Shown here in pieces: positions 2,681-14,337 of a stretch of 64,000 nucleotides of DNA. The DNA lies in assembly GCA_006218035.1 (NCBI GenBank), contig VBWC01000016.1, forward strand, positions 1 to 64,000, in the 5' to 3' direction. Each line of letters begins with the position of its first letter. Position 1 is the stretch's first letter. The notes below the pieces were generated by a model that saw only the letters and a list, made by a program, of their open reading frames with translations, searched no databases and had not been told where the DNA came from. The stretch comes from Gammaproteobacteria bacterium (GTDB lineage: Bacteria > Pseudomonadota > Gammaproteobacteria > VBWC01). The position numbers and the translations under genes were made by a program.

Positions 2681-2781
2681 GGAACCTCTGATGTGTCGTC
2701 ATTCCGGCCCCCGCCTGCGCGGGGGCCGGCTGCGCGCAGCGGAGAGCGGGAATGACGGACAAGAAATTAATCAGAGCTTCC
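2681..2781. mobile_element. MITE-like element with GGAAnCTCTGAT ends
   Basis: A roughly 101-bp element begins GGAACCTCTGAT and ends ATCAGAGCTTCC, an inverted pair, with a second inverted pair GTCATTCC/GGAATGAC inside and a strong central GC hairpin (CCCCCGCCTGCGCGGGGG). TTA occurs on both outer sides. It is one of several copies in the window (5986, 43988, 51532, 54371 and 58262). It lies in the 447-bp gap between the acetyltransferase and the tyrosinase gene; the rest of that gap (2782-3065) shows no gene or clear promoter. Confidence 0.65.
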
Positions 2782-3065
2782 CTTACGTTTCAACTATACC
2801 TTTACGGCGGGACGGCGGGAACCGTTGCGCGACGGCGCGGCCGTCCCGGGGTTCTCCCGGTGTGATCGCCAGGCGGGTCGAGGATGCGCCGGCATTCGCA
2901 CGCCCGTCGCGCCCGGTAATTTCTCACATTTCCCGGGCAACATTTCTCACAGTCTTTCCCCCCGTTTCGTCGTTAACTCAATGACACCACACATAGCGCC
3001 GTTAGCCGCGTTCGGCCACGGCCATTCACCGACGCCAGCGTCACCGACCACAGGAGAACCGTCCC

Positions 3066-5924
3066 ATGAAACCCGTCCGCCGCAATGTCGCCCATCTCAG
3101 CCAGGCCGAGCGCGATGCGTTCGTCAACGCGATCGTGCAACTCGATACATCGAAGGTATTCCCGGACGGCGTCTCGTACTGGGACAAGCAGGACCAGATC
3201 CACCAGGCTACGCACGTGCACGGCGGCGCGGCATTCCTGCCGTGGCACCGCGAGCTGCTGAACCGCTTCGAGGCCATGCTGCAGGAGGTCGACCCGAGTG
3301 TCGCGCTGCATTACTGGGACTGGACCGAGGACCCGCGTGTGGCGTCCAACGGTTCCGGCGGCACGGTTAATCTGTTCACCGCGGCGAACTTCGGCAGCTC
3401 CACCAGCCGCGCCGGCGTGCCGTTCGACAGCTTCGATAACGGCGGCAACTTCGCCGGCAGCCGCGACGACACCGGCAACCCGGCCGATCCGCCGCAGCAG
3501 ATCACGCGCAACCTCAACGCCGGCGCGCCGGGCGTCAATTCGGACAACGACATCATCACGTCGGCCGACGGATTGCCACAGGCACAGCAGTGGGCGGAGT
3601 TTCGCGACGTGCTGGAAAGCTCGCCCAACCACAACTCGGTGCATGGCTATTTCGGCGACGGCAGCACGATCAAGGCGTCGCACTCGGCGTTCGAGGACCC
3701 GTTCGTATTCTTATTGCATTCGAACATCGACCGGCTGTGGGCGATGTGGCAGATGCAGCCGGGTTACGAATGGCGGCTCGACCCGAGCCAGACCTACGGC
3801 GATGAGACCGGCGACGCCGAGATCATCGAATATCTCGAACCATGGTCCGGCACCGTGCATTTCGGCAGTCCGGTGCCGCCGTGGGACCCGGGCAACCCGG
3901 ACAACGAGATCGAACTGAAAAATTCGCGCCACCCCACCGTCGTGCAACCACCGTGCTATGACACGCTGCCGGTGTCGGTCGAGCTGCAATCGCCATCGTC
4001 CGGCGCGCCGCTGACCTTCAACGACATCCCCGAAGGCACCGAGACAGTGCGCGCAGCGGTGTTTGCGATACGCGCCTGCGAGGACATCACCTTCGACATC
4101 ATCGCCGGACCGGGCGCGGCCTTCGGCGCACCGCTGGGTACCGGCGTCACCGTGCCGTACAACGCCGGCGCGCTTGCCAACGGTTATGTGTGGGTGTCCT
4201 ACCAGGGCACGACGGCCGGTGCCGCCGCGGCCGGCAGCGTCACGATACGCTGCAACGAGACCGGCGAGGAGTGGATCATCCCGATCACCGCGAACACGAT
4301 TACCAAGCCCAAGGTCGCGTCGATGCTGGTGCTCGACAAGTCCGGCAGCATGGCCTGGAGCTCGGGTATCCCCGGCGAGACGCGGCTCCAGGTGCTGAAG
4401 TGGGCCGCGCCGCACTTTGTGCATGCGATGGGTAACGACGACGGCATCGGCATCGTCAGCTTCGACCATGACGCGTATCCGGTGATGCCGGTAACGCCGG
4501 CCGGCTCGTTGATGTTCGGCGCCGGCCGCGCCCAGGCATTGAACGCGATCAACCTGCATGACGAGGACGGCGGCGCGACGTCGATCGGCGACGGCCTCGA
4601 TCTTGCGCACGCGACGGTAGACCCGGTCGGCGGCTATGATCACAAGGCGCTGATCGTGTTTACCGACGGTCAGGAGAACACACCGCAGTACATCGCCGAC
4701 GTCGCGGCGATTCTCAACGAACGCGTGTTCGCGATTGGGCTGGGCCGCGCCGATCAGCTTGACGTGTCGACACTCGATACGCTGACCAGCGGTTCAGGCG
4801 GTTACATGGTCATGACCGGCGATCTCGACGTCAACGACCAATTCCGGCTCAGCAAGTATTTCCTGCAGATACTCGCCGGCGTCACCAACACGGCCATCGT
4901 CGTCGATCCGGAAAGCACAGTGCTGCCCGGGACCAAACATCGCATCCCGTTCACGCTGACCGGCGCGGACACCGAGACCGATATCATCCTACTGTCGCCC
5001 GACCCGTGGGCCCTCGACTTTTATCTGGAGACGCCGGACGGCAAGACCATCACACCCGCCGATGCGGCCATGCTGCCCGCCGTGACCTATGCGACCGCCG
5101 ACACGCTGCACATGTACCGCGCAACGCTGCCGATCCCGGTCGCCGGCGGCAAGGCGCACGGCGGCACCTGGCATGCGGTGATCTCGGTCGACGCCGGCAA
5201 CTTCAAGAAATACGTGTCGAAGCTGCGCGATAGCAACATCAGCCGCTGGTCGGCCAGCACCGCAATCCACGGCATTCCGTACAACCTCGGCGTCTACGCC
5301 AAATCGAACCTGCGATTGCGCGCGTCGGTTATCGCCAACAGCCATGAACCCGGTGCGACGGCGATGCTGCGCGCGGTGCTGACCGAATCCGATCTGCCGG
5401 TGGATCATCGCGCCGTCGTGCGAGTCGTGATACTGCGGCCGGACGGCACGACCGTTACCGTACCACTGACCGAGGGCGCGGCGGGCGAGTTCGAGCGGCC
5501 GGTCATGTTGTCACAGGCGGGCGTATACCAACTGCGTTACCTCGCCACCGGCACGACGCGCCGCGGCCAGCCGTTCACGCGCGAGGAGCTGCGCTCGATC
5601 GGCATTGCCCACGGCGCCGACACGCCGCGCCCGCGCAAGCCGGACGCGCGCGACAACGAGCTGTGCCGGCTACTGGCATGCCTGCTGGCCGACGAAGGCG
5701 CGCTGAAACTGATCGAACGCCTCGGCCTCAACCCGAAACGGCTGCTGGAATGCCTGAAGGAACTGTGCCGCAAGGTACAGCACGGCGACTCGACGTTCAC
5801 CGGCCACGCGGCGGCGGTCGCTCCGGCGACCGCGGCTAGCGCGTCACTGACGGAACTGCGCAAACTACTGGCGCAACCGGAAGTGCGCGCGATGCTCGGC
5901 AGGCTGTCACGCGTGGAGAAATAG
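3066..5924 (+). CDS. Tyrosinase-VWA fusion protein
   Basis: A 952-residue protein with a type-3 copper tyrosinase domain (about residues 5-230) followed by a von Willebrand factor A domain (about 417-600). Copper site A shows HVHG (H52) and FLPWHR (H61), with H46 or H50 as a candidate third ligand; site B shows HNSVH (H189, H193) and FLLHSNIDRLW (H218). The VWA domain has the metal-ion motif DKSGS near residue 424 and a later FTDG. The rest is beta-rich, ending in a Cys-containing helical tail. No signal peptide or membrane anchor is visible. A ribosome binding site AGGAG precedes the ATG. Tyrosinases oxidise phenols to quinones; the VWA part may bind a partner or substrate. A perfect terminator hairpin follows at 5939. 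Confidence 0.85.
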   Translation: MKPVRRNVAHLSQAERDAFVNAIVQLDTSKVFPDGVSYWDKQDQIHQATHVHGGAAFLPWHRELLNRFEAMLQEVDPSVALHYWDWTEDPRVASNGSGGTVNLFTAANFGSSTSRAGVPFDSFDNGGNFAGSRDDTGNPADPPQQITRNLNAGAPGVNSDNDIITSADGLPQAQQWAEFRDVLESSPNHNSVHGYFGDGSTIKASHSAFEDPFVFLLHSNIDRLWAMWQMQPGYEWRLDPSQTYGDETGDAEIIEYLEPWSGTVHFGSPVPPWDPGNPDNEIELKNSRHPTVVQPPCYDTLPVSVELQSPSSGAPLTFNDIPEGTETVRAAVFAIRACEDITFDIIAGPGAAFGAPLGTGVTVPYNAGALANGYVWVSYQGTTAGAAAAGSVTIRCNETGEEWIIPITANTITKPKVASMLVLDKSGSMAWSSGIPGETRLQVLKWAAPHFVHAMGNDDGIGIVSFDHDAYPVMPVTPAGSLMFGAGRAQALNAINLHDEDGGATSIGDGLDLAHATVDPVGGYDHKALIVFTDGQENTPQYIADVAAILNERVFAIGLGRADQLDVSTLDTLTSGSGGYMVMTGDLDVNDQFRLSKYFLQILAGVTNTAIVVDPESTVLPGTKHRIPFTLTGADTETDIILLSPDPWALDFYLETPDGKTITPADAAMLPAVTYATADTLHMYRATLPIPVAGGKAHGGTWHAVISVDAGNFKKYVSKLRDSNISRWSASTAIHGIPYNLGVYAKSNLRLRASVIANSHEPGATAMLRAVLTESDLPVDHRAVVRVVILRPDGTTVTVPLTEGAAGEFERPVMLSQAGVYQLRYLATGTTRRGQPFTREELRSIGIAHGADTPRPRKPDARDNELCRLLACLLADEGALKLIERLGLNPKRLLECLKELCRKVQHGDSTFTGHAAAVAPATAASASLTELRKLLAQPEVRAMLGRLSRVEK

Positions 5925-5938
5925 ATCGGCCGGCGTAT

Positions 5939-5973
5939 CCCCGCCATCGCCATAAGCCGCGATGGCGGGGTTT
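5939..5973 (+). terminator. Rho-independent terminator after the tyrosinase-VWA gene
   Basis: A perfect 12-bp stem (CCCCGCCATCGC pairing with GCGATGGCGGGG) with an 8-base loop is followed by a short T-run, 15 bases after the stop codon. It supports a monocistronic transcript. Confidence 0.8.
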
Positions 5974-5985
5974 GACCAGGTTCGC

Positions 5986-6112
5986 CCTCTGAATAATTCG
6001 TCATTCCGGCCGTAGCGCAGCGGAGAGCCGGAATCCAGTGCTACGCATTCAGCGGTTTACTGGATTCCTGCTTTCGCAGGAATGACGGATAAGAAATTAT
6101 TCAGAGATTCTT
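5986..6112. mobile_element. MITE-like element, degenerate ends
   Basis: The left end CCTCTGAATAATTCGTCATT and the right end ATTATTCAGAGATTC are inverted partners, and GTCATTCC/GGAATGAC lies inside. The interior GGAATCCAGT...ACTGGATTCC is itself an inverted repeat. The outermost GGAA bases are lost on the left, so this copy looks old. It occupies most of the gap between the tyrosinase gene and motA. Confidence 0.6.
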
Positions 6113-6286
6113 TCTGGACCGGCAAACCTTGCCGCTGTTGCCCGCATTGAGCTGCCAAAATCCGCCACCTCGCGCGATCGTGTTGCCGAAACCGAACACT
6201 AATGCCGTCGCTATCCGTCCGGACAAGCCGAATGTTGATCCGGCACGGATATTGCCCCTTTCTTGGGAAAACATACAGCGACAGCG

Positions 6287-7093
6287 ATGAAAAAATTTAT
6301 CGATACACAAAACTCGGCATTGATCGGGCTGCTTGGCGGCGTGCTGGTGCTGGCGACGATGGCAATGGCGTCGCACCAGGATCTGCTCGGACTGTTCAAC
6401 CTGCCCGGACTGGTGATGGTGCTCGGCGGCACACTCGCCGCGACGCTGGTCAGCCGGCCGATGAAGGACGTGATCACGGCGCTGCGCGCACTGCGCGCGC
6501 TGCTGCGCGACGAGAACCCTGGCCTGACCGGCGAGATCGGTCATTTATTGAATATCGCGCACTGGTATCGCGACGGCAATCTGCGCGCTGCGGAGCAGGC
6601 CATCGAGCAGGTCAGCAATCCGCTGCTGCGCGCCGGCGCGCAACTGGTGATCGACCGCGAACCTATCCAGGACATCGTCAAGTTATTGCAATGGCGCGTC
6701 ATCGGCGCCCGTACCCGCGATCTGAACAACGCCCAGATTCTGCGCACGATGGCGATGTTTGCCCCGGCGTTTGGCATGCTGGGCACGTTGTTCGGCCTGA
6801 TTCAGATGCTCGCCATCCTCGGCGCATCCGGACTGAGCGAGATCGGGGCAACGATGTCCTTTGCGCTGATCACGACGCTGTACGGTCTGTTGCTCGCCAA
6901 TATGGTATTCAAGCCGCTGGCGATGAAAATGGAACAGCGCATCGAACACCAGACGATGCTGATGAATTTTATTATCGAAGGCATATTGCTGCTGCATGAC
7001 CGCCGTCATCCGACGGTTATCAAAGAGGCACTTACCACCTACATGCAGCAACATCACACGGCAGCGCCGGACGCTATCGTGAAGGCCGCCTGA
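6287..7093 (+). CDS. motA: MotA/PomA-like stator subunit
   Basis: A 268-residue membrane protein with the MotA layout: two N-terminal spans, a large cytoplasmic loop (about residues 50-150), then two spans joined by the GMLGTLFGLIQML and ATMSFALITTLYGLLLAN segments that line the ion channel. It should pair with the next gene product to form an ion-driven stator complex. I start at the ATG at 6287 (MKKFIDTQ); an in-frame TTG at 6263 is less likely. No flagellar genes are visible nearby, which is common for stator operons. Proteins of this superfamily also power other envelope machines, so flagellar use is an inference. Confidence 0.85.
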   Translation: MKKFIDTQNSALIGLLGGVLVLATMAMASHQDLLGLFNLPGLVMVLGGTLAATLVSRPMKDVITALRALRALLRDENPGLTGEIGHLLNIAHWYRDGNLRAAEQAIEQVSNPLLRAGAQLVIDREPIQDIVKLLQWRVIGARTRDLNNAQILRTMAMFAPAFGMLGTLFGLIQMLAILGASGLSEIGATMSFALITTLYGLLLANMVFKPLAMKMEQRIEHQTMLMNFIIEGILLLHDRRHPTVIKEALTTYMQQHHTAAPDAIVKAA

Positions 7094-7106
7094 TCCGGGC
7101 TTGCGC

Positions 7107-7820
7107 ATGAATCGCACCAGCCTAGACTCTTACCAGGGCATCCATCATCGAAACAGCGCGTTTCATCCGGTCGCTGCGCCACATGACGCACAGGAAAGCG
7201 ATGGCTGGCTGATCAGCTTTGTCGACATACTGACGCTGCTCGTCACGCTGTTCGTCGTGTTGCTCGCGTTCAGCCAGTACTCGGGACAGGTCAAGACGGC
7301 GTCGAAGGTAAAGGCGGAAAAACACGTCATGGCCGGCACGACGGCAACGCAGCAGAACGACACGCCACCGGCCCGGGAACTGATCGACGACCTGACGATA
7401 CCGCCGGACCTGCAACACCAGCTGGAAATCACGCGCACCGCGACGTCGGTAAATTTCGAAATCAAGGACAGCGTGCTGTTCGACACCGCCAGTGCCGATC
7501 TGAAACCGGCCGGCCGCACGATACTCGCGCGCATCGCCGGTGTGCTCGACAAAAGCCGCTACCAGATCTCCGTGGAAGGCCATACCGACAACGCGCCGAT
7601 ACACACGGCACGCTTTCCGTCGAACTGGGAGCTGTCTACGCTACGCGCCACGACGGTCACCCGTTACCTGATCGAACAGGGCATAACAACCGAACGCCTG
7701 CGTGCCACCGGCTATGCGGATACGCAACCGCTGGCGGTCAATACCGACGACACCGGCCGCGCGCGTAACCGGCGCGTATCGCTGGTGGTGAATCTGAACG
7801 ATCCGGTCAAGCAGTTCTGA
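7107..7820 (+). CDS. motB: MotB-like stator subunit with OmpA-type peptidoglycan-binding domain
   Basis: A 237-residue partner of MotA. A single membrane helix follows the plug-like DGWLISFVDILTLLVTLFV stretch, whose aspartate is the expected ion-binding residue. The C-terminal half is an OmpA/MotB domain with VEGHTDNAPI and the NRRVSLVV end, which anchors stators to peptidoglycan. It lies 13 bases after motA and is surely cotranscribed. I start at the ATG at 7107, not the upstream TTG. The protein is somewhat shorter than flagellar MotB of enteric bacteria. It converges on the eptA gene, with a 47-base gap. Confidence 0.87.
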   Translation: MNRTSLDSYQGIHHRNSAFHPVAAPHDAQESDGWLISFVDILTLLVTLFVVLLAFSQYSGQVKTASKVKAEKHVMAGTTATQQNDTPPARELIDDLTIPPDLQHQLEITRTATSVNFEIKDSVLFDTASADLKPAGRTILARIAGVLDKSRYQISVEGHTDNAPIHTARFPSNWELSTLRATTVTRYLIEQGITTERLRATGYADTQPLAVNTDDTGRARNRRVSLVVNLNDPVKQF

Positions 7821-7867
7821 CGGGCTGTATACCGAACGGCACACAGCGACGGTAATACGCGTCTGTC

Positions 7868-9526
7868 CTAGCCGGTGCGGCAGGTCGAGAACAGATCGCG
7901 CTCCGCCCGGTAAACGGCGGTTTCGACAGCCATCACGCCCAGCACCGAGTGAAACAGATTGTCGTGGGAGTAAGCCGTGTCGCGGTTTCGCGCGAGGCAA
8001 TCGCCATCGATACTGGCGCCTTTCGTCAACTCATCCGACAGCCACAATACCATCGGCACCTTCTTCTGCTCATCGGGCGCAAACGCATAGGGAAGGCCGT
8101 GCAGATAAACGCCGTGCTCACCCAACGACTCGCCGTGATCAGACACATAAACCATGGCGCTATCGAAAGCGGCGCTGTTGCGTTTGAGCAGATGGATCAC
8201 CTCGGCGAGAAAATGATCGGTATAGGCGATGGTGTTGTCGTAGGCGTTCATCAGCATTTCGCTGCTGCAGTCCTCGACGTTTGCGATGGCGCATTCCGGC
8301 TGGAAGCGCGTATAGGAGGCGGGGTGGCGCAGATAATAGGAGGGACCGTGGCTGCCCATCTGGTGCAGCACAACAACGGTATCGCCCTTGATCTTGTCGA
8401 GATACTCCTGCAGCCCGGTCAGCAACTCCTCGTCGTAACACTCACCGGCGTGACAGAGTACCGGATTCAGATTGTCGGACACCTGTTCCGAAGCGACACG
8501 CGCGCACACGCCCTTGCATCCCGCGTTATTGTCACGCCACAGTACATTGACACCGGCATGCGCAAGCACATCGAGAAGATTTTCGTAATGCTCCGCATCA
8601 CCGTTAAAGCCGTCACGCCCGAACATGGAGAACATGCACGGCACCGAGATCGCCGTCGACGTGCCGCAGGAGGACACGTTACGAAAGTTGATCACATGCT
8701 CCTTGCCGAGCTCCGGATTGGTCAAACGGCCGTAGCCGTTCAGCGAAAATGCGCTGGCCCGGGCGGTCTCGCCGACCACGACGAGGACCAATGTGCTCTT
8801 GCCGTCGGTCACCGTGGCCGCCTTCCTGTGCGCATCCGCTCCGACCAGAACCAACCCGGTGCTGCGCGAACGATTGACGAAATACTTGACGACTGAATGA
8901 ACGGGATAGGTCGGATTGATATAGAACCGCAGGTCCGAGTGCTCCCTGCCGACAAACGAGAAGTCCTTGTAAAAAGCCAGCAGTCCTCCAACCAGCAGTA
9001 CCGAGGCCATCAGCATCGTTGCGCCACGGACGAGGACCTCGCGGAAGAAAGGGCGATATTTGATCCTGACGGCGATGACGAACAACGCGGGAAGCAGCCC
9101 GGTGGCCAGGAAATACAATGCGGACTTCGCCGTCAGTAACTCCGACGCTTCGTTATAGTTCGTTTCCGCCATGTTGCGGATCATGACGCTGTCGATGACC
9201 ACGCCATTCTGACTCATGAAATAACCGGCCATGGACGCGGTGACCAGCATCACGATGAGCACCGGTTTAAACAGGTACTTGATGCCGAACAACGAAAAGA
9301 ACAGTGTCAGCCAGGCAACCAGCACCACGAAGACCGTGACCAGAAAGGCCGCGTGGCGGAGCGTCGATGCGTCGACCACCTGGAAAAGGCGGCTCCAGAA
9401 CGCGTAACTGTCGACGGTCACGACAAACAGCGCGCAAACGACCGTGAGCGTGACAACGCCCAGACTGGGGCGGGACAGCCAGGCCGGCAATATCCGCTTG
9501 AACGATGCTGAAGACAGGTCTGTCAC
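7868..9526 (-). CDS. eptA: Lipid A phosphoethanolamine transferase (EptA/Mcr family)
   Basis: A 552-residue inner-membrane enzyme with five N-terminal membrane spans (about residues 20-185) and a periplasmic alkaline-phosphatase-like domain. Metal and catalytic residues of the family are visible: E253 in VVGETARA, the nucleophile T289 in SCGTSTAISVPCMF, and D463-H464 in SDHGES; many cysteines in the periplasmic part fit the family's disulfides. It transfers phosphoethanolamine from phosphatidylethanolamine to lipid A, which lowers surface charge and affects cationic peptide resistance. The gene stands alone with no PmrAB-like regulator nearby. Acceptors other than lipid A are possible. Confidence 0.9.
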   Translation of the reverse strand: MTDLSSASFKRILPAWLSRPSLGVVTLTVVCALFVVTVDSYAFWSRLFQVVDASTLRHAAFLVTVFVVLVAWLTLFFSLFGIKYLFKPVLIVMLVTASMAGYFMSQNGVVIDSVMIRNMAETNYNEASELLTAKSALYFLATGLLPALFVIAVRIKYRPFFREVLVRGATMLMASVLLVGGLLAFYKDFSFVGREHSDLRFYINPTYPVHSVVKYFVNRSRSTGLVLVGADAHRKAATVTDGKSTLVLVVVGETARASAFSLNGYGRLTNPELGKEHVINFRNVSSCGTSTAISVPCMFSMFGRDGFNGDAEHYENLLDVLAHAGVNVLWRDNNAGCKGVCARVASEQVSDNLNPVLCHAGECYDEELLTGLQEYLDKIKGDTVVVLHQMGSHGPSYYLRHPASYTRFQPECAIANVEDCSSEMLMNAYDNTIAYTDHFLAEVIHLLKRNSAAFDSAMVYVSDHGESLGEHGVYLHGLPYAFAPDEQKKVPMVLWLSDELTKGASIDGDCLARNRDTAYSHDNLFHSVLGVMAVETAVYRAERDLFSTCRTG

Positions 9527-10016
9527 CTGGGTTTTCTCAGGGCAGATCGGCCCAGTGGGTACAAAAATCGGAACATCAACATTATTTCGGCTGCTGCACC
9601 GGCAGGATTAACCGAAAACACCGGCACAGGCCCGGCGGTCCCGGTATAGCTTTTTAATAAGAAGGCCGCGGCCGAAAAAAGTTCCAATAAATGTGGTGTT
9701 ACCGTTCAACGTGTGTCTGCGCCAACCGCCGCCGCCTGGCGACGAACCCGGCCGACGAATAACTCTTCTCGACATCGATGCTCGAATTTTTCCGTGCCAT
9801 CGATGCACTCCTGATCATCAGAAAAACGTAAAGCCACAGTGCAAAGCTCAACTAATGCGATGCGAAAGCCCCGTTATGTTGCCACGCATTATTGGTTAGC
9901 AGGCTGTTGAAAAACAGCCTGCGTGCGGTGCATGGATGCACTGCCATTTTTCACAACATCCTGTTAGTATAGGTCTGTATGCCGTGGCATGGATTCCACG
10001 TAGAACCGGAACACCA
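9527..10016. other. Gap upstream of the nap operon with a strong hairpin
   Basis: No gene is evident in these 490 bases. At 9899-9922 there is a perfect 10-bp stem, GCAGGCTGTT/AACAGCCTGC, with a GAAA loop, and right after it GTGCAT..ATGCAC (9928-9941) forms a smaller inverted repeat. The nap promoter must lie here or in the first hundred bases upstream, but I see no convincing FNR half-site pair. The hairpin has no T-run, so it is not a standard terminator. Confidence 0.5.
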
Positions 10017-10523
10017 ATGGACAGCATAGCCACGAAACCGACGCGTACCCGATTGAATTGCCGCGATTTCGCGAACCAGCGCGACCCAATCTATCCACCG
10101 TGGGCGCTGGCAACCGAAAAATTTCTCGACGCCTGTTCGCGCTGCGGCGCCTGCATCACCGACTGCCCCGAACACATACTGGAAACCGGCGCCGGCGGCA
10201 TACCCCAGGTCAGCTTCGTCAGCGGCGCGTGCACGTTCTGCGGCGTCTGCGTCAATGTCTGCAAGGACCGCGCGCTGGTCAGGCATATCGACGGCGTCGA
10301 ACAAGCGCCGTGGACAGTGGTCGCCAGCATCGGTGAGGACTGTCTCGCGACACTGAACATCGCCTGCCAGGAGTGCGCGGATCATTGCGAACAGCACGCC
10401 ATCCGCTTTCGGCCGCTGATCGATGGCACCATTGAACCGCGGGTCGTCGCCGCGCGCTGTACCGGTTGCGGCGCATGCGTCCGTCCTTGTCCCGGCAATA
10501 CGATTGGGATGAGGCCTGCTTGA
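10017..10523 (+). CDS. napF: Ferredoxin-type protein NapF
   Basis: A 168-residue iron-sulfur protein. Four-cysteine [4Fe-4S] motifs appear as CSRCGACITDCPE, CTFCGVCVNVCK and CTGCGACVRPCPGN, as in NapF. It acts in the cytoplasm and is thought to help assemble or activate the iron-sulfur cluster of NapA before Tat export. I start at the ATG at 10017 because the region before it is not conserved-looking. Its stop codon overlaps the TTG start of napD, so translation is coupled. First gene of a napFDABC operon. Confidence 0.9.
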   Translation: MDSIATKPTRTRLNCRDFANQRDPIYPPWALATEKFLDACSRCGACITDCPEHILETGAGGIPQVSFVSGACTFCGVCVNVCKDRALVRHIDGVEQAPWTVVASIGEDCLATLNIACQECADHCEQHAIRFRPLIDGTIEPRVVAARCTGCGACVRPCPGNTIGMRPA

Positions 10524-10780
10524 CCGTATCCGGCGTATTGATTCATGTCCGACCCGCAGATGCAGCACGCGTCGGCGCTTCTCTTGCGGCGCTCCCCGGC
10601 GTTGAAGTACATACGCCGGGCGATGACGGCCGCATGGTTGTCACCATCGAAGGCGATAATGACCGTGACGTGTCGGACATGTTTGTCAGGCTGCACGATA
10701 TTCAAGGCGTGGTCGCGGTGACACTCGCCTGGCATCACAGCGAACGATCAGAGGAACCCGATGAAGCTCACGCGACGTGA
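10520..10780 (+). CDS. napD: NapA signal-peptide-binding chaperone NapD
   Basis: An 86-residue protein with the NapD fold: [32 protein letters not shown] and a C-terminal VTLAWHH. NapD binds the Tat signal of NapA and delays export until the enzyme is mature. The start is a TTG overlapping the napF stop, preceded by GGGATGAGG as ribosome binding site; an upstream in-frame extension exists but lies inside napF and is not NapD-like. The 3' end overlaps napA by 20 bases. Confidence 0.88.
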
Positions 10781-13274
10781 ATTTCTCAAGACCAACGCCG
10801 TGGCCGCGACGGCAGCGGCCGCCGGCATATCTCTCCCGGGCGTCGTCGGCGCGGCCGCGGACGCCGGCAAGATACGCTGGGACAAGGCGCCATGCCGGTT
10901 CTGCGGCGTCGGTTGCAGCGTGATGGTCGGCACGAAAAACGGCCGCGTTGTCGCCACGCAGGCGGATGTCCTCGCGCCGGTCAATCGCGGCCTGAACTGC
11001 GTCAAGGGCTATTACCTGTCGAAGATCATGTACGGCGCCGACCGGCTGACGACGCCGCTGCTGCGCATGAAAGACGGCAAGTTCGACAAGCACGGCACGT
11101 TCACGCCGATCAGCTGGGATCAGGCGTTCGACATCATGGCCGAGAAATACAAGGCCGCGTTGAAGACGAACGGGCCGTCGTCGGTCGGCATGTTCGGATC
11201 CGGCCAGTGGACCATCTGGGAAGGCTACGCGGCGGTCAAGTTCATGAAGGCCGGGCTGCGCTCGAACAACCTCGATCCGAACGCGCGGCATTGCATGGCC
11301 TCGGCCGTCGCCGGGTTCATGCGCACGTTCGGCATGGACGAGCCGATGGGCTGCTACGACGACTTCGAGCACGCCGATGCGTTCGTTTTATGGGGCTCGA
11401 ACATGGCGGAGATGCATCCGGTGCTGTGGACGCGCCTGACCGACCGGCGATTGAGCAATGATCATGTACGTGTCGCCGTGCTGTCGACGTTCCGCAACCG
11501 CTGCTTCGATCTGGCCGACCTGCCGATGATCTTCCGGCCACAATCCGATATGGCGATTCTCAATTACATCGCGAACTACATTATCCAATCCGGCGCCGTC
11601 AACAACGAGTTCGTCGGCAAGCATGTGAACTTCCGGCGCGGCGTCACCGATATCGGCTACGGCCTGCGGCCTGAGCATCCGTTGCAAAAGGCCGCGGCGA
11701 ACGCCGGCAACGCCAACGACTCGCAGCCGATGACGTTCGATGAGTACAAGGCCTTCGTCGCTGAATATACGGCCAAAAAAGCGCACGACATCTCCGGCGT
11801 GCCGGAACAGGATCTCGAAAAGCTCGCGCGACTGTACGCCGATCCGAAGATCAAGGTGATGTCGTTGTGGACCATGGGCGTCAACCAGCACACGCGCGGC
11901 ACCTGGGTCAACAATCTGCTCTATAACATCCATCTGCTGACCGGCAAGATCGCCGAACCGGGCAACAGTCCATTCTCGCTGACCGGGCAGCCGTCGGCCT
12001 GCGGCACGGCGCGCGAGGTCGGCACGTTCTCGCACCGTCTGCCGGCGGACATGGTGGTGACAAAGAAAGAACATCGCGATGTCGCCGAGACGCTTTGGCA
12101 GTTGCCGGCAGGCACGATTCCCGATAAACCCGGCTATCACGCCGTCGAACAGAACCGCATGCTGCGCGACGGCAAGCTGAACGTGTACTGGACACAGTGC
12201 GTCAACAATATCCAGGCCGGCGCCAATCTGCTGGAAGAAGGCCTGCCCGGCTACCGCAATCCCGACAACTTCATCATTGTTTCCGATGCGTATCCGACGG
12301 TATCGGCGATGGCGGCCGATCTGGTGCTGCCGACCGCGATGTGGGTCGAAAAGGAAGGCGCGTACGGCAATGCCGAGCGTCGCACGCAGTTCTGGCGCCA
12401 GCAGGTACGCGCGCCGGGCGAGGCGCGCTCGGACCTGTGGCAGATTGTCGAATTCTCGAAGCGGCTGAAGGTCGCCGACGTGTGGCCGGACGAATTGATT
12501 GCGAAGAAACCGGAATACAGCAACAAGACGCTCTACGACATTCTGTTTGCAAACGGTATCGTGAATAAGTATCCGCTGGAACAGGTTGCACAAGGCTACG
12601 ACAACGATGAATCACGGGCATTCGGCTTTTATCTTCAGAAAGGCCTGTTCGAGGAGTACGCACAGTTCGGCCGCGGGCACGGCCACGATCTCGCGGAATT
12701 CGATCGCTATCACAGCGAGCGCGGCCTGCGCTGGCCCGTGGTCGATGGCAAGGAAACCCAGTGGCGCTACCGCGAGGGCTACGATCCTTACGTCGCGGAA
12801 GGCAAGGGCGTCGAGTTCTACGGCCATGCGGACGGCCGCGCGATCATCTTCGCGTTGCCTTATGAGCCGCCACCGGAATCACCCGATGCCGAATTCGATC
12901 TGTGGCTGGTGACCGGGCGCGTACTGGAGCACTGGCACTCGGGCACGATGACGCGCCGCGTACCGGAACTGCATCGCGCCGTGCCGGATGCGTATGTCTA
13001 CATGCATCCCGATGACGCGAAGGCACGCGGCCTGAAGCGCGGCATGGCGGCCATACTGCAATCGCGACGCGGCGAGATGGTCACGCTGGTTGAAACACGC
13101 GGCCGCAACCGTCCGCCGCGCGGCGTTGTGTTTGTACCGTGGTTCGATGAGAGCCGGCTGATCAACAAACTGACGCTCGATGCGACCTGTCCGATCTCGA
13201 AACAGACGGACTTCAAGAAGTGCGCGGTGCGCATCGTCAAGGCGCCGCTGCCGGCGCCGGGGGCAACCGCATGA
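10761..13274 (+). CDS. napA: Periplasmic nitrate reductase catalytic subunit NapA
   Basis: An 837-residue molybdopterin oxidoreductase, the usual NapA length. It opens with a Tat signal (TRREFLK, then an Ala-rich stretch), followed by the [4Fe-4S] site C45-x2-C48-x3-C52 and C80. The molybdenum ligand is C178 in ARHCMASAV. It reduces nitrate to nitrite in the periplasm with electrons from NapB. The gene overlaps napD upstream and, by ATGA, napB downstream. The absence of napG and napH means quinol electrons should arrive only through NapC. Confidence 0.96.
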
Positions 13275-13741
13275 ATATCACGAACCCGCTGTTAACATGG
13301 ATTGCCTGCGGCGCGGTTGTCATGTCAGCGCCGGTATTCGCCGGCGACGGCCTCACCTCGTTGCGCGGCGACACGCCCATCGAGCAAAGCAGTCCGGCGC
13401 CGGAGATTTCGAGCTGGAAGCAGGATGACGTTGCGGTGGAACGCAACTTCGCGGAGCAACCCCCGCTGATTCCGCATCACATCAAGGCTTACAAGATCGA
13501 CCTGCGCAGCAACAAGTGCCTGACCTGTCACAACCGCGCGATGGCGCAGAAGACCGGCGCGCCCGAGATCGGACCGACGCACTTCCGTGACCGCGACGGC
13601 AATGAAACGCCGGGCGTGTCGCCGCGACGCTATTTCTGCCTGCAGTGTCATGTGCCGCAGAAGGCGGTGTTGCCGCTGGTCGATAACACATTCCGCCAGG
13701 CGGACGCGGAAAATCAAACACAACGACAGGGATCGCAATGA
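13271..13741 (+). CDS. napB: Diheme cytochrome c subunit NapB
   Basis: A 156-residue exported cytochrome. After a signal peptide (residues 1-24, ending PVFAG) two heme sites are seen: CLTCH (83-87) and CLQCH (123-127). It is the electron-transfer partner of NapA in the periplasm. The start is the ATG that overlaps the napA stop (ATGA), and the stop overlaps napC the same way, so the three genes are translationally coupled. Confidence 0.93.
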
Positions 13742-14337
13742 CTGACGACAGTTCCGCAAGCTGGTTGAAACGCTGCTGGCGAAAAATATGGAGACCCAGC
13801 GCACGCTTTTCCGTGGCAACGCTGCTGATCGGCGGCTTTGTCGCCGGGATTGTCTTCTGGGGCGGATTCAATACCGCGATGGAAATGACCAATAAAGAAA
13901 AATTCTGCATCGGCTGTCATGAAATGCGCGACTTTGTTTACAAGGAATACCAGGATTCAGTGCATTACAACAACAAAACGGGCGTGCGCGCCACCTGCCC
14001 GGACTGCCACGTGCCGAAGGAATGGATACACAAGGTCGTGCGTAAAATCCAGGCAAGCAACGAGGTGCTGCATAAAGTGCTTGGCAGCATATCGACCGAA
14101 GAGAAATTCGAAGCAAAGCGCCTGGAACTCGCACAACACGTCTGGCACACGATGAAGGAAACGGATTCGCGCGAATGCCGCAACTGCCACGACTATGAAT
14201 CGATGGACTACATGGAACAGGCGCGGCGCGCCTCGGAAAACCATCAGCGCGGTTTCGATCAGGGCCTCACCTGCATCGACTGCCACAAAGGCATCGCGCA
14301 CTCCCTGCCGGCGGGATTCGAGGAAGGCAAGCTGTAA
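13738..14337 (+). CDS. napC: Membrane-anchored tetraheme quinol dehydrogenase NapC
   Basis: A 199-residue NapC/NirT-family protein with one N-terminal membrane anchor (about residues 25-45) and four CxxCH heme sites: CIGCH, CPDCH, CRNCH and CIDCH. It oxidises membrane quinol and passes electrons to NapB. Length and heme spacing match NapC. It is the last gene of the operon; no NapE, G or H gene follows. I see no strong terminator behind it, only 85 bases before the convergent SEC-C gene. Confidence 0.94.
   Translation: MTDDSSASWLKRCWRKIWRPSARFSVATLLIGGFVAGIVFWGGFNTAMEMTNKEKFCIGCHEMRDFVYKEYQDSVHYNNKTGVRATCPDCHVPKEWIHKVVRKIQASNEVLHKVLGSISTEEKFEAKRLELAQHVWHTMKETDSRECRNCHDYESMDYMEQARRASENHQRGFDQGLTCIDCHKGIAHSLPAGFEEGKL

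What the first reader, a model, noticed from the sequence alone, without database searches (positions are those of the whole stretch)
3066..5924. Tyrosinase fused to a VWA domain without signal peptide
Seen: full copper-site histidines of tyrosinase (52, 61, 189, 193, 218) and a MIDAS DKSGS in one 952-residue protein with no export signal. Known: tyrosinases usually are secreted or use a helper; VWA proteins often bind partners. Inference: an intracellular or non-classically exported phenol oxidase complex.
Basis: partly seen in the sequence, partly recalled or inferred. Interest (0 to 1): 0.6.

Follow-up and report, generated by a model that had tools for sequence, protein, structure and literature searches.

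The report
Leaderless tyrosinase with swappable VWA module
This bacterial gene joins a copper enzyme that oxidises phenols to a large binding module, and the same module turns up on unrelated enzymes (peptidases and another oxidase) that also lack an export signal, in bacteria and a salt-loving archaeon, which suggests an undescribed add-on that places enzymes where they act.

Summary
Window 3066-5924 is one intact 952-aa frame with a tyrosinase domain (Pfam E 8.5e-28), a VWA domain with a complete MIDAS, and no signal peptide or transmembrane segment. The fusion is not an artefact: it recurs in about 15 genomes (Gamma- and Alphaproteobacteria, Burkholderiales, Actinobacteria, a haloarchaeal plasmid) and is under purifying selection. 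The C-terminal ~590 residues form a mobile module (Ig-like, VWA, beta region, FnIII-like, cysteine hairpin). It also sits on M14, S8 and M64 peptidases and, in diverged form, on a LodA-like quinoprotein oxidase. None of those proteins has a recognisable signal peptide. Two separate tyrosinase lineages carry it (AU p 7e-42), and close relatives carry ricin or FG-GAP domains in the same place. So the VWA half is neither a tyrosinase lid nor a partner particular to phenol oxidation. Most likely it is a targeting or docking module acting through its MIDAS. How these leaderless proteins leave the cell, if they do, is not shown. Verdict: new variant of a known kind; rare, patchy, apparently undescribed.

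The parts
3052..3056 (+). Shine-Dalgarno-like AGGAG, nine bases before the ATG
   Evidence: sequence; conserved in the same-genus gene
3066..5924 (+). Complete gene: 952-aa tyrosinase-VWA fusion, no signal peptide, no TM segment
3066..3998 (+). Tyrosinase region, residues 1-311 (Pfam core 39-230 = 3180-3755)
   Evidence: PF00264 8.5e-28; PDB matches to bacterial tyrosinases and hemocyanins
3201..3248 (+). CuA ligands H46 (inferred), H52, H61 and the FLPWHR motif
3630..3719 (+). CuB ligands H189, H193, H218; HB1+1 Asn N190 (waterkeeper-position E184 lies just upstream)
3999..4310 (+). Ig-like domain, residues 312-415 (FNDIPEGTETVRA motif; Cys 338/396 pair)
   Evidence: module alignment A2; beta strands in the model
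4311..4883 (+). VWA domain, residues 416-606
   Evidence: PF13519 2.2e-13, PF00092 1.6e-9
4335..4349 (+). MIDAS DKSGS (D424, S426, S428); completed by T505 (4578-4580) and D534 (4665-4667)
   Evidence: invariant in 11 aligned modules; position check
4884..5621 (+). Beta-rich region plus FnIII/Ig-like domain, residues 607-852
   Evidence: model pLDDT mostly 75-90 here; alignment
5658..5780 (+). C-terminal helical hairpin, residues 865-905, C867-x4-C872 and C896-x4-C901
   Evidence: inner pair invariant in 12 tails, outer pair co-occurs in 9; only significant copy in this genome
5781..5921 (+). Terminal extension, residues 906-952, variable linker then a helix
   Evidence: present in Proteobacteria, Hydrogenedentota and S8 members, absent in the actinobacterial tyrosinase members; relaxed dN/dS 0.26-0.51

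Best explanation
The gene encodes a type-3 copper phenol oxidase (tyrosinase domain) translationally joined to a mobile C-terminal targeting/docking module of about 590 residues (Ig-like, VWA with intact MIDAS, beta-rich region, FnIII-like, cysteine hairpin). SHOWN: the fusion, its conservation, the complete sequence sites, the reuse of the module on leaderless M14, S8, M64 and LodA-like enzymes, and the exchange of the same C-terminal place with lectin-type and FG-GAP domains in related tyrosinases. INFERRED: the enzyme folds and takes up copper in the cytosol without a caddie, reaches its site of action by a route other than Sec or Tat (leakage, lysis or a specific route), and the module then holds it on a surface or polymer through a MIDAS-bound Mg2+/Ca2+ and an acidic ligand, with the cysteine hairpin stabilised by disulfides, so that quinone production is kept local.
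For: Full-length fusions at 29-95% identity in Gammaproteobacteria, a Rhodocyclaceae MAG, Lentzea, Tessaracoccus, Cellulomonas, Microvirga and Haloarcula. Same module, 40-48% identical, on M14 (Caballeronia, Tessaracoccus) and S8 (Tessaracoccus, G499); more diverged on M64 (G910) and LodA_N/LodA_C (G1083). No signal-like N-terminus in any of 16 module proteins checked. VWA-fused tyrosinases are not one clade (AU p 7e-42); the window's module groups with that of the Caballeronia M14 peptidase (96/93) while its tyrosinase domain groups with the actinobacterial ones (87/79), pointing to module exchange. MIDAS residues invariant in 11 modules. Related tyrosinases carry ricin, FG-GAP or fucose-lectin-like domains C-terminally. 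Paired tail cysteines. No MelC1 over cut-off in this genome and no caddie-like gene beside this fusion.
Against: No export route was identified and neighbouring genes are not conserved, so a cytosolic role is not excluded. The MIDAS is degenerate in the LodA-linked copy (DRSAH, TDN). One tyrosinase member (G448) lacks the cysteine hairpin. Ligand and localisation are unknown. The structure model is weak (mean pLDDT 52.5), so domain borders and the H46 ligand rest on sequence. The 96/93 and 87/79 branches behind the module exchange are moderate.
Confidence: 0.5

Rival explanations
1. The C-terminal half is a latency lid and copper-loading domain, like the C-terminal extension of Verrucomicrobium, plant and fungal polyphenol oxidases, removed by proteolysis to activate the enzyme.
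For: Bacterial tyrosinases with C-terminal inhibitory extensions exist (PMC10526336). This fusion has no caddie-like neighbour, whereas second-lineage fusions do.
Against: The same module sits on S8, M14, M64 and LodA-like enzymes with unrelated active sites, and close tyrosinase relatives do without it or carry lectins. Second-lineage fusions have both the module and a caddie-like gene.
Confidence: 0.12
2. A cytosolic enzyme: the VWA module is a scaffold for an intracellular complex, or a client site for a MoxR AAA+ ATPase that inserts copper (as VWA-MoxR pairs mature other metalloenzymes).
For: No signal peptide or TM. A MoxR-like ATPase gene is the divergent neighbour in the Rhodocyclaceae MAG (identified by eye).
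Against: MoxR-like genes were not seen next to the fusion in the window or the other loci inspected. The module also serves serine and zinc peptidases that need no such maturation. Ig, FnIII and cysteine-pair features fit an oxidising, external place better.
Confidence: 0.2
3. A toxin-like or conflict effector: leaderless oxidase and peptidase heads carried by a common delivery module, used against other cells.
For: Interchangeable enzymatic heads on one C-terminal module, adjacent S8 and M14 versions in Tessaracoccus, rare and patchy distribution (about 1% of sampled genomes or less). LodA-type enzymes generate antimicrobial hydrogen peroxide (PMC4417212).
Against: No immunity-like gene, no secretion apparatus nearby and no defence-system model match for this protein; neighbours not conserved.
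Confidence: 0.1
4. Artefact: two genes fused by a sequencing or assembly error.
For: The genome is a fragmented assembly of 62 contigs.
Against: Independent assemblies and phyla show the same junction; purifying selection on both halves.
Confidence: 0.01

Closest known systems
Streptomyces MelC2 tyrosinase with MelC1 caddie (NF047834, PF06236)
   Same: Type-3 copper domain; the tyrosinase itself has no signal peptide
   Different: About 270 aa, no C-terminal module, copper loading and Tat export through MelC1; here no MelC1 over cut-off in the genome and NF047834 score 87 against a cut-off of 450
Bacillus megaterium tyrosinase (3NM8)
   Same: Caddie-independent (PMC10526336); sequence match E 3e-22
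   Different: About 300 aa, no VWA module
Verrucomicrobium spinosum tyrosinase with C-terminal extension (PMC10526336)
   Same: Core plus C-terminal extension, no caddie
   Different: Tat signal present; extension is a jelly-roll lid, not Ig-VWA-FnIII; here the extension is shared with unrelated enzymes
CLCA proteins (TIGR00868; 6PYO VWA)
   Same: Enzyme head followed by VWA and beta-rich domains (architecture from general knowledge); the VWA matches CLCA1's (E 0.0034)
   Different: Zincin head, secretory signal, eukaryotic; only the VWA stretch is matched
LodA-like quinoprotein oxidases with vWA domain, Amycolatopsis and Cryptosporangium (PMC4417212)
   Same: Oxidase plus PF13519; the G1083 example found here carries a diverged copy of the module and a LodB-like flavoprotein gene next door
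   Different: Different catalytic head (quinone cofactor); degenerate MIDAS in the G1083 copy; the paper mentions the VWA only in passing

Membership tests
Tyrosinase / type-3 copper (PF00264) | Domain match above curated cut-off | tested here: met
   98.6 bits against 22.6
Tyrosinase / type-3 copper (PF00264) | Three CuA and three CuB histidines | tested here: met
   H46, H52, H61, H189, H193, H218 conserved in at least 90% of relatives; H46 as first CuA ligand is inferred because the loop to H52 is short
Tyrosinase / type-3 copper (PF00264) | Monophenolase and diphenolase activity | not testable with these tools
   E184 and N190 at the waterkeeper and HB1+1 positions are compatible
MelC2 equivalog (NF047834) | Score above curated cut-off and MelC1 partner | tested here: not met
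   87 against 450 bits; no MelC1 over cut-off in the genome
VWA domain with functional MIDAS | DxSxS, T and D residues | tested here: met
   D424/S426/S428, T505, D534 invariant in 11 modules
PPO with C-terminal lid domain | C-terminal domain specific to the tyrosinase active site | tested here: not met
   Same module on S8, M14, M64 and LodA-like proteins
CLCA family (TIGR00868) | Full-length model above cut-off | tested here: not met
   32.7 against 900.85 bits, VWA stretch only
Sec/Tat secreted protein | N-terminal signal peptide | tested here: not met
   Hydropathy 0.95 against 1.6-1.8 for Tat controls, no twin-arginine signal followed by a hydrophobic stretch; no signal-peptide predictor was available

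The most novel reading that the evidence does not exclude
The Ig-VWA-beta-FnIII-cysteine-hairpin unit is an undescribed portable module, spread by recombination among bacteria and haloarchaea, that gives leaderless pre-folded enzymes (copper and quinone oxidases, several peptidase types) a route out of the cell and an address on a surface.
Probability: 0.2. Interest if true: 0.75.

Novelty: new variant of a known kind. Interest (0 to 1): 0.52.

Why it matters
How folded, cofactor-loaded enzymes without signal peptides (LodA-type oxidases, many bacterial tyrosinases) reach their place of work is open. One conserved C-terminal module shared by five unrelated enzyme classes makes that question testable: swap it between enzymes, mutate its MIDAS, and see whether location follows. 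It also shows that bacterial tyrosinases recruit interchangeable binding domains, which matters for their role in phenol turnover and for enzyme engineering.

Tried and rejected
Frameshift or mis-annotation (rejected: conserved fusion). Mobile-element cargo: a palindromic dispersed repeat flanks the gene on both sides, but its core has only 9 matches in the genome and none in the syntenic same-genus locus that also has the fusion, so it does not mark insertion of the gene. Phage origin: no relatives in viral contigs. Defence system: no PADLOC match for this protein. Tail as a genome-wide sorting signal: no second copy of significance in this genome. MelC1 homology of the small genes beside second-lineage fusions: no Pfam or NCBIfam match of significance, hhalign probability 3% though in a plausible register; left as likely caddie-like by position and pattern only. 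Structure: the AlphaFold model from 10 rows is weak and Foldseek gave only generic beta-sandwich and VWA matches. Literature: no paper found on a tyrosinase-VWA fusion; only open-licence papers were searchable.

Full report
Observation. The frame at 3066-5924 is intact, starts at ATG behind AGGAG, and has no upstream in-frame start. Pfam finds Tyrosinase at 39-230 and VWA at 420-581; NCBIfam gives MelC2 and CLCA/BatA matches far below cut-off; PDB gives bacterial tyrosinases and molluscan hemocyanins. In this lineage the loop between the first and second CuA ligands is unusually short (H46 to H52). The alignment program put W39 under the MelC2 ligand, but moving a short insertion matches W-D-K-Q-D-Q-I-H46 to Y-D-E-F-V-A-A-H; this remains an inference.

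The fusion is real. Full-length homologues occur in a same-genus genome (95% identity), a Rhodocyclaceae MAG (75%), Lentzea, Tessaracoccus and Cellulomonas (45-47%), G035 (39%), and Haloarcula and Microvirga plasmids (36% and 32%), with more in later samples. Against the same-genus gene, dN/dS is 0.069 for the tyrosinase part and 0.014 for the VWA. The family is rare: 3 of 369 sampled genomes of the class carry a strong match, 1 of 399 in the phylum sample (the window's own genome), 2 of 389 in the order of the Rhodocyclaceae MAG and 2 to 3 of 385 in the class of Tessaracoccus.

The C-terminal half is a mobile module. Residues ~312-905 (Ig-like, VWA, beta region, FnIII-like, cysteine hairpin) align along their whole length with the C-terminal parts of proteins with other heads (11 modules, 35-74% identical to the window's): Peptidase_M14 in Caballeronia and Tessaracoccus (by sequence inspection), and Peptidase_S8 in Tessaracoccus and G499. 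Peptidase_M64 in G910 and LodA_N/LodA_C in G1083 carry more diverged copies. The LodA case has a LodB-like flavoprotein gene next to it (by eye; the Pfam scan of that gene was given a wrong frame and returned nothing) and echoes two VWA-bearing LodA proteins noted in PMC4417212. None of 16 module proteins checked has a signal-like N-terminus.

Trees support exchange. Tyrosinase domains of VWA fusions fall in two lineages and are not one clade (AU p 7e-42). Within the first lineage, relatives carry ricin lectin, FG-GAP repeats or nothing in place of the module; in the second, a fucose-lectin-like domain. The window's module groups with that of the Caballeronia M14 peptidase (96/93), while its tyrosinase domain groups with the actinobacterial ones (87/79). 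These two branches are moderately supported.

Helpers. Four fusions of the second lineage (G035, Haloarcula, Microvirga, G1183), and two lectin- or repeat-type tyrosinases (Methylobacter, Streptomyces), are preceded directly by a small leaderless protein (66-93 residues in the five read) with a G-H-x-[IV] ... L-x-I-D-G-like pattern resembling the MelC1 core. Statistical homology to MelC1 is not established. The window's lineage has no such gene and the genome no MelC1 over cut-off.

Mechanism. The MIDAS is invariant in 11 modules and the place of the module is taken by lectin-type domains in relatives, so a binding role is the best reading. The twin C-x4-C hairpin, with an invariant inner pair and a mostly co-occurring outer pair, suggests disulfides and hence an oxidising site, but metal binding is possible. 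Export is unexplained: no shared neighbours and no shared secretion system were seen. I therefore rank the leaderless docking enzyme first (0.5), cytosolic scaffold or MoxR client second (0.2), with the lid domain (0.12) and conflict effector (0.1) below.

Novelty. Domains and enzyme are known kinds; the architecture and the promiscuous module appear undescribed in the open literature searched. Absence from that library is weak evidence.

Noticed in passing
window 2697-2780 and 6000-6110: A palindromic dispersed repeat (TCATTCCGG...GGAATGACGGAYAAGAAATTAWTCAGAG) lies on both sides of the fusion gene; 9 matches (up to 2 mismatches) to its core in the genome, none in the syntenic same-genus stretch L011.
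   Followed up: partly
L004:947-1180, L020:4794-4994, L021:4741-4995, L057:2897-3178, L060:3983-4234: Small leaderless protein encoded directly upstream of second-lineage tyrosinases in bacteria and a haloarchaeon; a candidate caddie without a signal peptide, unannotated in Pfam.
   Followed up: partly
L032 (Tessaracoccus) 5676-11469, - strand: Adjacent genes for an S8-subtilase and an M14-carboxypeptidase carrying the same C-terminal module; the M14 copy's module breaks off after its VWA part.
   Followed up: partly
L022:3490-3912 and L053:4193-4645: 140- and 150-aa proteins of unknown family overlap the start of the M14- and M64-module genes; they resemble neither each other nor known families clearly.
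   Followed up: partly
L033:6538-8076, - strand: Lentzea has a second, N-terminally truncated copy of the module about 73 kb from the first, perhaps a decaying gene.
   Followed up: no
L039:1309-4470 (G448): A tyrosinase-VWA fusion whose C-terminus is a His/Asp/Glu-rich tail (HDHGQAEEHDEHGHEHHDHD...) instead of the cysteine hairpin; looks like a metal-binding tail.
   Followed up: no
L028, L029, L030, L031, L064: More distant VWA-beta-FnIII proteins with other heads (repeated Ig-like, cytochrome-like, trypsin-like); L028-L031 end in a C-terminal hydrophobic, anchor-like stretch.
   Followed up: partly
window 9936-14337: Periplasmic nitrate reductase (nap) gene cluster by sequence inspection; ordinary.
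   Followed up: no
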